Positions 52,401-55,400 of a stretch of DNA of 64,000 bases are shown in pieces. Location: NCBI GenBank assembly GCA_947172415.1, contig OX359202.1, positions 3,942,001 to 4,006,000 of the forward strand, in the 5' to 3' direction. Origin of the DNA: Chondrosia reniformis. Taxonomy: Eukaryota; Porifera; Demospongiae; Chondrillida; Chondrillidae. The notes below the pieces were generated by a model. That model worked only from the letters and a program-made list of their open reading frames with translations, did not search any database and was not told where the DNA came from. Each line of letters starts with the position of its first letter. Position 1 is the first letter of the stretch. A program made the position numbers and the translations under genes.

Positions 52401-55400
52401 TGTCATGTACAGATTCATGTACTCACTCTTGACTAGACTGTAGCCTTAATCTTCACTTACTATGAAACCACAAGTGTTTCACTTGAAATGGATTAGTAAG
52501 TTGAATATAATCATCCATGCTCACCATCAGTAGTGTACCACACTGATGAGGCCGAAGGAGGGTGAAACAGCTGTCTGTGGTTCTTTTGATTTTTTTCATT
52601 TTGGATGACTGGGAGGTGATCATTGATTAATATGACTTTGGTATAACAACCAAGATCAGACTTCAGTCACTTGGTTTGTCAGGCATACGTAATATCTCCC
52701 AGTGACCATTTCTATTGCGTACATATGTGTATGAATATAGTAATTGAAACACAGGTTCATACATATTAACAAATATTACACGCTTCAACCAGGAAATCTG
52801 CTTTAGCAATGAATTGATGATGCTCAACCAACCCAAATACCATTTTAAATGTAACAAATAACTCTTATCATTTCTGAAAAAGCATGGAGATACATATGTA
52901 TGTACATTTACAGAATTTCTTAAAATTTGAGGAATTCTTATGCTAACTACTCTACCTATGTTTGCAGCTGAACATACAGCTACTTCTCTAGTTTAGTTTT
53001 GCATCATTTCCTTTGCTGTAGGTTTTGGATGATAGATATGCTATCATATATGACAGAAGAGCAACACTGTAAGTCAATAATGTGTGGTTAATAGCACAGT
53101 CTTATTAATGGTTTTAAGTAAAATGTTTTGTTAGGAATGAAAGTTCATCATCTGAAACAAAAAATGAAGTACTGTATGAGCGGCTGTCTTCATTAATTGC
53201 TCGTGAATACTTGAAGTGTTTAGGTAGGTAATTTGTTGCCAAAAATTATAAACTTTACATCATGTTCCCCTTTCTTGTAGAAGCTTACCTCCTAACAAAT
53301 ATTGCTGAAAAGGAAGAACATTCTACTCAAGGAGATCAATCAGGGGAGGAGCTATTATTGCAGAGCAGGAAACAAGAAGAAATTGATTTGTCAGAATTTG
53401 GATTTGGAGGAATTTGCTTGACCTCACTTTCAAAGGAGATGTTGATACAGGTAGAATACATATGTAGTATATTTGATCTCACACTGGGCTTGGTAGCTTG
53501 GTTCTTTTTGAACTGTGTTGTAATAGTTAAAATTTTGCTGCATGTGAGTCAATCTACCAAAGTGAGCTTTAATCCTATTCAAATTAAAAAGCTGGCATTT
53601 CCAATTTAGTCTACATTTTAAACAAGTGGCACTATGAACGTTTGGGTTCCTCTTTTCCTGTCCATGTCCCCTGCAAATTGAAATGTTGATCTCAAGAACC
53701 TTACCTCTTGAGGTGCAGTGCTATGACCAGGTCGACACTATAAATCACCTACTCTGGTTCAGCCTAGCTACTACGTAGCTCTTCAGTTACTTTTGGAGGG
53801 AGCACGATGTTGGAACTATCTCATTGCTGGGCTATTTTAGCTTTGAACCAGTGACTACTGGTTTGTCTTACTTGATAGCTGTAGGGATGCAATTACTGAT
53901 TTAGATTTCACTTGCTTAGAATTATCATTGAATGAATCAGTAATCAAAGTGGTGGCCCCATGAATAATGTAACACACCATTTTCCAATATGCTACATCTA
54001 TTTTAGATTAAAAGGCCTATTGGGACTAAACCTAGAGAGAGTTTTGGATGAGGATGTAAACTCTTAAGACATTTTTCCCTCTTCTTCTTCTCCACTGGGA
54101 CAGACAGCCTTATTCTAGGAATTCCATCCTTCATCAGTGACCCTGTGAATCTTTGTCTTCTTCTTGATCTTGTGTGAGTCCCCATGCATGCCTGAAGATA
54201 GCACTCTCAGTTTTATAGCATATAGTGTAGTAGGGATAGTTTAAATTGAGCCCTGAATCACTACACCTCAAGCTGGAGGGAATTGGCAGAAAGGCAAAGA
54301 TCCTACTGCTAGCTAGATAATCTAGCTGTAAATGATCAAGTTCTAGTCTCCATGGAGTGGATTTGTGTTTATAGCTATCTGATTTTTAACATAAGTAATG
54401 GCTGACTTTGATTATTTGTCAGTAGTGTTTGATTGTTTTCTTTTATGTTGTAATTTACTGGGCTCTCTGCAAAGTTTAACCACACTGGGGTAAGTGGAGT
54501 TCCAATATAGAAATGATTCGTTATACCTTATACCTGAAATATAGGGCTATACATGGTACATTTGAATTTAAAGGGATCTATGCTTTTTGTTTACCAATAA
54601 TAGGGAATTATAAGGTCTTTACACGTCAGTTAGCTTACAATGTACAAGCCTTGCCATAATTAGACTCTTAAACCATAACTTTTACTCCATATACTTAACT
54701 TTTTGTATTAGAAGCTTCCACTTCTGCAATGGGCTTCCCATCCTTTGGTTTGGGATGATTTACATTTTGCTATTAAAGCAGCCAAGATCTGTGCCCTTCT
54801 TTATGTCCAGGTATGTTTTTATCTTTTATACAGATGATTAAATGTACATGTTTATTACTAGGGTGGATGAGTTTAATATGCATGTTACTATTCATAAATT
54901 AAGAAACCTAGTTGGTAGGAATTATTTAAGAGTTAAATTTGTGTTATACCACCTTTTACTTGCCGCTTGACTTTATAGTTGTATGATTATCTGAGTATTT
55001 CTGAGTTGGACTGCATGGATTGCTTCTCTTTGTATATTTTGAGGTGTTCAAACCCTGCTTGAAAATCAATTGTTAGGCTTAATTAAAAGTATCATGCTAA
55101 ATATTGTACATGGAAATTCAAAACAGTCTGGATTTATCCTGATCAGTGGTCACAAAATGAGTAATGATTAATGTTCACCTCTTACTACCTGACCTAATCT
55201 ACATACAGATAGGTATGTACGTATGTATTTCAGTGTATGTTTTAACAGAAAGTGACATACGTACAGTATAAGGCTTACTTTGTCTCTTTAGTATAACAGC
55301 TTTGGAGAGGTAGACACTGAACTTATGGAAGACCTTTTTATTCATGTTTTGGAGGTATAACAGTGTTACTAAATGTATATACGTATATAATGCATCAAGT

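What the first reader, a model, noticed from the sequence alone, without database searches (positions are those of the whole stretch)
52537..52581. A near-consensus type I hammerhead ribozyme inside a short non-coding element
Six perfect stem I pairs, both invariant core blocks and a GTC cleavage site occur together, which is unlikely by chance. The host element R is only about 265 bp, has no reading frame, and has two decayed relatives nearby (39064-39331 inverted, 50290-50450). That fits a retrozyme-like, ribozyme-processed circular RNA element. Its stem III palindrome (ACAG/CTGT, no loop) suggests cleavage works best in a dimer or circle.
Basis: partly seen in the sequence, partly recalled or inferred. 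Interest (0 to 1): 0.85.

Follow-up and report, generated by a model that had tools for sequence, protein, structure and literature searches.

The report
Fossil sponge retrozyme with hammerhead ribozyme
The window holds a decayed copy of a small non-coding mobile element of a marine sponge that carries a self-cutting hammerhead RNA motif, and its better preserved relatives bear the insertion scars of Penelope-like retrotransposons, which points to the machinery that moves such RNA parasites.

Summary
The hammerhead motif is real, by layout and by descent. The host genome matches the kidney sponge Chondrosia reniformis. The window copy (52434-52713) is one aged, 5'-truncated copy of a 359-nt element; its own hammerhead misses Rfam's threshold and looks damaged, yet a covariance model built from relatives alone finds it at 70.4 bits. 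Relatives carry type I hammerheads that pass Rfam RF00163 (7 of 9 loci tried), stand in tandem arrays and fold strongly. Two families, 61% identical outside the ribozyme, keep its pairing by compensatory changes. This is a non-LTR retrozyme family. New here: inserts end mostly at two sites about 45 nt apart (67 of 79 3' ends); 18 of 26 inverted arrays have one arm at each site, 1 both at the same site; 17 of 53 share 9 nt or more across the insert. That is the published scar of Penelope-like elements (head-to-head arms, one with a 'tail'), which abound in this genome and occur in this window with the same scar. Mobilisation by Penelope-like elements is well supported; circular RNA and cleavage are inferred.

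The parts
52434..52713 (+). Retrozyme copy of family A, 5'-truncated (unit 218-359 then 1-147), 0.78 of a unit; no target-site duplication found
   Evidence: BLAST to the 359-nt unit, 78% identity; longest word shared by its flanks is 4 nt
52521..52595 (+). Hammerhead with outer stem Ib, as modelled
   Evidence: family covariance model 70.4 bits, E 9.2e-20
52537..52581 (+). Hammerhead core of the finding: stem I 52537-52542/52576-52581, CTGATGA 52543-52549, stem II 52550-52553/52560-52563 (GGCC/GGGT, one mismatch), GAAA 52564-52567, CAGCTG 52568-52573, predicted cleavage after C52575
   Evidence: one unpairable pair
39060..39384 (.). Second family A insert: left arm on the minus strand (3' end at unit 145), right arm on the plus strand (3' end at unit 194), head to head; its hammerhead is broken
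   Evidence: GTTGTCCTGCA on both sides at 39040-39050 and 39387-39397
50353..50420 (+). Possible remnant of a third copy
   Evidence: weak: 0 and 2 of 500 shuffles, 11.3 bits E 2.5
32055..33869 (+). Penelope-like element with an inverted left arm without tail and a right arm with tail, flanked by ATGAATTATCTT at 32043-32054 and 33870-33881; candidate kind of helper, this copy itself incomplete
32460..32861 (+). Reverse transcriptase frame of that element
   Evidence: RVT_1 32.8 bits, cut-off 29.6
32771..33637 (+). Frame with a GIY-YIG-like endonuclease part
   Evidence: GIY-YIG 21.3 bits, under the cut-off of 22.6; GVIYQIPC...YIGETSK shared with L075 and similar in L074
32106..32130 (-). Minimal hammerhead-like motif (no helix III) in the left arm of the Penelope-like element
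33761..33785 (+). Minimal hammerhead-like motif in the right arm

Best explanation
The motif is the fossil hammerhead of one dead copy of a non-LTR retrozyme family in what matches the sponge Chondrosia reniformis. Shown from sequence: non-coding units of 350-359 nt with a type I hammerhead, in tandem; two diverged families that keep ribozyme and whole-unit pairing; 3' ends at two preferred sites; head-to-head arms that mostly use one site each; short duplications of the target in a good part of the inserts; the same anatomy in resident Penelope-like elements. Inferred: arrays are transcribed; the hammerheads cut the RNA into units, probably best as dimers; a host ligase (an RtcB gene is present) closes them into circles; a Penelope-like protein cuts both strands of the target and each strand primes copying of the RNA at one of the two sites; copying runs on for one or more units; the two cDNAs are joined head to head. 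The window copy is a one-armed, truncated product of this, since mutated and probably unable to cut.
For: Descent. Ribozyme: Rfam RF00163 in 7 of 9 loci tried, 34.2-37.1 bits against 34; 94.9% of 663 cells of 16 pairs paired in 42 hammerheads against 85.3% shuffled and 29-42% slid, 7 pairs with double changes. Whole unit: z -6.94 and -6.99, 24 of 72 predicted pairs with double changes in 12 units. Tandem. Two-site ends, one per arm, shared flanks: (67 of 79; 18 of 26; 17 of 53 against at most 4 in 500 permutations). Junctions: 28 head to head, 10 same direction, 1 tail to tail, which joins an A and a B piece; arm 5' ends differ by more than 5 nt at 26 of 28. Penelope-like elements: 136 matches, 16 of 20 close pairs head to head and none tail to tail, tail on one arm in both elements looked at. 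Published scar: PMC3846280 (passages), PMC11167929 (main text). RtcB.
Against: No RNA data: expression, cleavage and circles untested. 12 of 79 3' ends lie off both sites and 7 of 26 inverted arrays have one arm off; the end intervals were set after seeing the data. 36 of 53 arrays share less than 9 nt across the insert, the window copy only 4, and some flanks are simple or minisatellite repeats where a shared word need not be a duplication. Tails of Penelope-like elements and retrozymes are not alike in sequence beyond chance (981, 36, 324 and 312 of 1000 shuffles as good). The GIY-YIG match is under its cut-off in the window frame and absent at E 0.01 in L074 and L075. In the anole element hammerhead mutants insert normally, so uncut RNA may serve as template. 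The helper's identity rests on shared scars, and other retroelements of the genome were not surveyed.
Confidence: 0.78

Rival explanations
1. Ordinary satellite DNA: the arrays grew and moved as DNA by unequal crossing-over or extrachromosomal circles, and the hammerhead is a bystander.
For: Tandem arrays of near-identical units.
Against: Preferred ends, head-to-head arms and words shared by the flanks mark insertion of the array as a unit; structure is kept between A and B.
Confidence: 0.07
2. The template is an uncut or linear multimeric transcript; circles play no part, and the hammerhead serves something else.
For: Anole Penelope-like hammerhead mutants insert normally in vitro (PMC11167929); sequence alone does not tell a circle from a multimer.
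Against: One-armed 5' ends gather near the start region, 18 of 27 at unit 100-200, as expected for about one turn of a circle, though a stop at structure in the RNA would do the same; circles are shown for other animal retrozymes (PMC7229834).
Confidence: 0.25
3. A short interspersed element moved by a LINE, with L1-like twin priming making the inversions.
For: Short, non-coding, with target duplications; L1 twin priming (recalled, no call) also makes inversions.
Against: Two 3' ends used one per arm and tandem units are not what that mechanism predicts (recalled); the match to Penelope-like scars is specific. LINEs of this genome were not examined.
Confidence: 0.08
4. The window copy is a ribozyme kept by the host for its own use, or a chance motif.
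For: It stands alone and misses Rfam's threshold.
Against: Descent from the family; its ribozyme fold lies 12.1 kcal/mol above the best fold against 5.2-6.2 in five relatives, the opposite of preservation.
Confidence: 0.02

Closest known systems
Metazoan non-LTR retrozymes (Cervera and de la Pena 2020, PMC7229834; parts 1-4 of 6 read)
   Same: Type I hammerhead in non-coding tandem units of a few hundred bp, GC under 50%, strong self-pairing, Penelope-like elements with minimal hammerheads in the same genome.
   Different: Sponge host; ends at two sites, head-to-head arms. The words inverted, head-to-head, orientation and truncat do not occur in that paper's main text.
Penelope-like elements (PMC3846280, passages; PMC11167929, main text)
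   Same: Head-to-head arms, a tail of 30-40 bp on one arm bounded by two RT start sites, target duplication, partial tandems.
   Different: The retrozyme codes for nothing, is 350-359 nt long, and its hammerhead has helices I, II and a short III; the 'tail' here is about 45 nt and not alike in sequence.
Amphibian satellite hammerheads (HHR_Amex1 in PMC7229834)
   Same: Very short helix III with a palindromic apex (here C-G closing AGCT), known to favour dimers.
   Different: Unrelated unit sequence was not tested; other host phylum.
Rfam RF00163 Hammerhead_1
   Same: Relatives match positions 1-45 of 45 at 34.2-37.1 bits, gathering 34.
   Different: The window copy is not reported at gathering.

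Membership tests
Metazoan non-LTR retrozyme (the family, not the single copy) | Canonical type I hammerhead | tested here: met
   12 matches at gathering in 7 of 9 loci given; L021 (altered cleavage site) and L071 (family C) gave none
Metazoan non-LTR retrozyme (the family, not the single copy) | Tandem units of about 150-450 bp, many copies | tested here: met
   359- and 350-nt units; up to five in a row; 139 exact A cores and 96 exact B cores
Metazoan non-LTR retrozyme (the family, not the single copy) | Low GC (under 50% in the text, under 45% in its figure legend) and no long reading frame | tested here: met
   44.3% and 46.3% GC (the second is over 45%); longest ATG frames 51 and 55 aa
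Metazoan non-LTR retrozyme (the family, not the single copy) | Target-site duplications, when present, longer than 4 bp | tested here: met
   17 of 53 arrays share an exact word of 9 nt or more, permutation mean 0.55, maximum 4
Metazoan non-LTR retrozyme (the family, not the single copy) | No LTR, primer-binding site or polypurine tract | not tested
   not searched for
Metazoan non-LTR retrozyme (the family, not the single copy) | Highly self-paired RNA | tested here: met
   z -6.94 and -6.99, 0 of 100 shuffles as good
Metazoan non-LTR retrozyme (the family, not the single copy) | Self-cleavage and abundant linear and circular RNA | not testable with these tools
   no RNA data, no bench
Metazoan non-LTR retrozyme (the family, not the single copy) | Penelope-like elements with minimal hammerheads in the same genome | tested here: met
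   136 matches; minimal motifs at the ends of L075 and of the window element
Rfam RF00163, window copy itself | Score at or over gathering (34) | tested here: not met
   no match at gathering in the window
Penelope-like element, window 32055-33869 | Reverse transcriptase with GIY-YIG endonuclease | tested here: inconclusive
   RVT_1 over its cut-off, GIY-YIG under it; motif seen in alignment; L074 frame RVT_1 only, L075 frame no Pfam match at E 0.01
Penelope-like element, window 32055-33869 | Inverted terminal repeat, tail on one arm, target duplication | tested here: met

The most novel reading that the evidence does not exclude
Animal retrozymes are RNA parasites of Penelope-like elements that imitate their two-site internal start of reverse transcription: the two cut strands of the target each prime on one of two sites of the same, probably circular, RNA, giving twin-primed, rolling-circle, head-to-head arrays. 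This would turn the published suggestion that Penelope-like elements move retrozymes into a readable genomic signature, and would extend retrozymes to sponges.
Probability: 0.55. Interest if true: 0.78.

Novelty: new member of a known kind. Interest (0 to 1): 0.6.

Why it matters
Which autonomous element moves animal retrozymes is open: the 2020 paper calls Penelope-like elements a strong candidate because of shared hammerheads, tandem copies and co-occurrence (PMC7229834), and a review says that the repeats show no conserved motif from which the machinery could be deduced (PMC7761336, passage). The paired two-site ends found here are such a signature and can be looked for in any animal genome with retrozymes. 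The case also puts retrozymes in a sponge, outside the range 'from cnidarians to mammals' given for type I hammerheads of animals (PMC7761336, passage).

Tried and rejected
Ciona was my first guess for the host, from genome size; dropped because the mitochondrial cox1 reads as a normal protein with table 4 (table 13 also leaves the frame open, but puts Gly and Met at places where I expect Arg and Ile, a judgement from memory), and because total size, contig number, chromosome lengths and mitogenome length match Chondrosia reniformis. The host is thus identified by figures, not by sequence comparison.

Snap-back self-priming as the source of the inverted arms (the reading favoured for rotifer elements in PMC3846280): disfavoured here, since the two 5' ends differ by more than 5 nt at 26 of 28 junctions.

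Sequence kinship of retrozyme and Penelope-like tails: not shown. A shared hairpin between the two end sites: B has an 11-pair hairpin there, A folds differently in isolation, and the consensus fold keeps only three pairs, so no common recognition hairpin is claimed. Relatives elsewhere: the exact-core pattern has 0 matches in viral contigs and 0 in genome contigs, collections of viral, bacterial and archaeal sequence. Family C as a third retrozyme: not claimed; L071 gave no match at gathering, L072 no hammerhead at E up to 1, and its stem II starts with an A-A mismatch.

Counts and what was dropped. The end intervals (unit 138-157, 187-201) were set after seeing the ends, so the binomial values printed are not used. 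One search listed 64 arrays after overlapping loci of one place were left out; one search used 53 (left out: L017 and L040 as repeats of others, fragments under half a unit, identity under 80%, arrays near a locus edge). Loci are not a random sample: L001-L030 are best matches to the window copy, L041-L070 the first exact B cores in genome order, the rest chosen arrays. The model and the first pair count used 36 of the 42 hammerheads found besides the window copy; five of the six left out have altered flanks, so I recounted with 42 (94.9% instead of 95.3%). The search asked for an intact core, so broken cores are absent from both.

Literature: 'hammerhead ribozyme'+'Porifera' 0 papers; 'hammerhead'+'Amphimedon'+'ribozyme' 1, on another subject by its title; 'hammerhead ribozyme'+'sponge'+'retrotransposon' 15, judged by title apart from passages of two; 'retrozyme' 34, 30 listed; 'twin priming'+'hammerhead' 0; 'Penelope'+'head-to-head'+'target-primed reverse transcription' 0. 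Most subscription papers are not held, so this does not prove absence from print. Cervera and de la Pena 2014 and Lunse et al. 2017, on hammerheads in Penelope-like elements, were seen only as reference entries.

Full report
What is in the window. Rfam finds nothing at gathering in the window and, at E up to 10, 17.4 bits to Hammerhead_3 at this spot. The copy is therefore not near-consensus: stem II has a G-G mismatch and a G-U pair at its base.

Host. The window is G000:C14:3942001-4006000 of a genome of 117,379,552 bases in 15 contigs. Contig 15 (17,451 bp) is a mitochondrial genome whose cox1 reads as a normal protein with table 4. Total length, 14 chromosomes plus a 17.45-kb mitogenome, and the chromosome lengths that I saw fit the kidney sponge Chondrosia reniformis, assembly odChoReni1.1 (PMC12181767, abstract and passages). 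This identification rests on figures.

The family. Window 52430-52700 has 69 listed matches in the genome (583 candidates, 40 scored, so a lower bound). The relatives carry CTGATGAGCCCAAATGAGGGCGAAACAGCTGTC or close variants with the same stem I. The open pattern CTGATGA-N6-20-GAAACAGCTGTC has 529+501 exact matches and none in the reversed control. The cores fall into families: A (67+72 exact), B (CTGATGAGTCCTAATAAGGAYGAAAC, 54+42) and C (670+706). C sits in a different, dispersed element of about 210-220 bp. In arrays the A unit taken from L032 is 359 nt and the B unit from L058 350 nt, cleavage site to cleavage site. L032 holds five A units in one direction and one in the other, L036 four in a row.

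The ribozyme is real in the family. Of nine loci given to Rfam, seven hold Hammerhead_1 (RF00163) at gathering, 12 matches of 34.2-37.1 bits against 34; in L058 two further copies score 33.7 and 32.2, just under. With the hammerhead structure plus an outer stem Ib, 94.9% of 663 cells pair in 42 distinct hammerheads, against 85.3% in shuffles and 29-42% in slid versions; seven of 16 pairs show a double change. The number of pairs with double changes is itself not above the shuffles (75 of 500 reach it), while cells with double changes (81 against 32.4) and the covariation score are (0 of 500). Most double changes mark one split, A against B (stem I G-C/A-U and U-A/C-G, stem II U-A/C-G), so they are few events. 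A model from 36 of these, none of them the window copy, finds 52521-52595 with 70.4 bits, E 9.2e-20; the next match has 13.1 bits.

The whole unit behaves as an RNA. Between A and B the hammerhead is identical at 40 of 49 aligned places and the rest at 172 of 284. Yet both fold far better than shuffles (z -6.94 and -6.99, 0 of 100 as good), and the consensus fold of 12 units has 72 pairs, 24 with a double change; again most follow the A/B split. The longest ATG frames are 51 and 55 aa.

The window copy is a fossil. It spans unit 218-359 and 1-147 at 78% identity and folds about as expected by chance (z -1.37, 20 of 200 shuffles as good). In the 75-nt ribozyme stretch the hammerhead fold lies 12.1 kcal/mol above the best fold, against 5.2-6.2 in five relatives, because CATCAGT pairs with ACTGATG over the core. 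With a single hammerhead it cannot release a unit. Its flanks share no word over 4 nt. That it cannot cut is a prediction.

How the family inserts. Loci were mapped to the units and 53 of 64 arrays kept. Of 79 3' ends, 40 lie at unit 138-157, 27 at 187-201 and 12 elsewhere. Of 26 arrays with a head-to-head inversion, 18 have one arm at each site, 1 has both at the first, none both at the second, and 7 have one arm off both. Of 27 one-armed inserts, 17 end at the first site, 5 at the second, 5 elsewhere; their 5' ends gather near the start region (18 of 27 at unit 100-200). The two flanks share an exact word of 9 nt or more in 17 of 53 arrays, against a mean of 0.55 and at most 4 in 500 permutations (L019 15 nt; L002, L032, L038 and L045 14; the 14 nt of L056 are a TA repeat, and L015 lies in minisatellite-like DNA). 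Junctions between neighbouring pieces are 28 head to head, 10 in the same direction and 1 tail to tail, the last joining an A piece to a B piece and so probably two separate insertions. At 26 of 28 head-to-head junctions the arms start more than 5 nt apart in the unit, so the arms look like two cDNAs rather than one that snapped back. BLAST ends are uncertain by a few nt, and the intervals were chosen after the fact; the one-arm-per-site pairing was not built in.

The machinery. [quoted passage not shown] In the anole element the tail corresponds to the stretch between two internal RT start sites, and the protein cuts and extends both target strands (PMC11167929, main text). The sponge genome is rich in such elements: the window's GIY-YIG frame gives 136 matches (135 of 1,257 candidates scored). 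Of 20 neighbouring pairs under 6 kb among them, 16 are head to head, 4 point the same way, none is tail to tail. The window holds one, 32055-33869, with RVT_1 over its cut-off and GIY-YIG just under, a left arm without and a right arm with tail, and ATGAATTATCTT on both sides. L075 is a second, palindromic over 858-3018 at 98.6%, with the tail on the left arm only. The window's second retrozyme insert, 39060-39384, has the same anatomy: left arm ending at unit 145, right arm at 194, GTTGTCCTGCA on both sides. An RtcB ligase gene is present (five partial matches on C8, as of exons).

What remains open. Expression, cleavage and circular RNA were not tested. Penelope-like and retrozyme tails are not convincingly alike in sequence, and no common hairpin at the start sites was shown. 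In the anole element hammerhead mutants insert normally, so uncut multimers remain possible templates. LINEs were not surveyed. The loci sampled are not random.

Place among known things. By the published description (PMC7229834, parts 1-4 of 6) this is a metazoan non-LTR retrozyme: every defining feature that I tested is met for the family, RNA features could not be tested, and the absence of LTR, primer-binding site and polypurine tract was not searched. The short helix III with palindromic apex is like the amphibian type that works best as a dimer. The sponge host was not found in the searches, and that paper does not mention sponges; head-to-head or inverted retrozyme arrays are not mentioned in the two retrozyme papers that I searched for them. 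I therefore rate it a new member of a known kind with new evidence on its mechanism.

Noticed in passing
window 4584-4803 (-) and 53959-54175 (-), fragments near 35485, 55476, 59111 and 59416; L071, L072: Family C: a dispersed element of about 210-220 bp with a hammerhead-like core (CTGATGAAGGGTGGAATTCCCAGAAAC, 1,376 exact copies genome-wide) and the same GAAACAGCTGTC as A and B; A-A mismatch at the base of stem II, no Rfam support in the two loci tried. A possible hammerhead-bearing SINE.
   Followed up: partly
window 22393-22417 (-), 24682-24706 (-), 28930-28954 (+), 32106-32130 (-), 33761-33785 (+), 47637-47661 (+): Six minimal hammerhead-like motifs without helix III (CTGATGAAGACC...GAAACGT), of the kind published for Penelope-like elements; a Penelope-like frame lies just before the one at 47637.
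   Followed up: partly
window 21400-22587 and 28760-29874: Large inverted repeat with arms 94-100% alike in pieces, about 6-8 kb apart, with minimal hammerhead motifs in both arms and a 72-bp tandem repeat at 21663-22094.
   Followed up: no
window 1-12300 (roughly): Long minisatellite with a 13-bp period (TAGTTGTATGTAC-like). Several retrozyme and Penelope-like inserts lie in similar DNA (flanks; L074 and L075), as if it were a favoured target.
   Followed up: no
L010, L018, L019, L033, L038 (family A): Inserts 98.6-100% identical to the unit from L032 at scattered places, some with clean flanking duplications, which suggests recent activity.
   Followed up: no
window 58130-59095 (+): Frame with an APC10 (anaphase-promoting complex subunit 10) domain, 64.4 bits; probably a host gene.
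   Followed up: no
window 7173-7266 (+): ARAGORN calls a tRNA-Thr inside the minisatellite; probably spurious.
   Followed up: no
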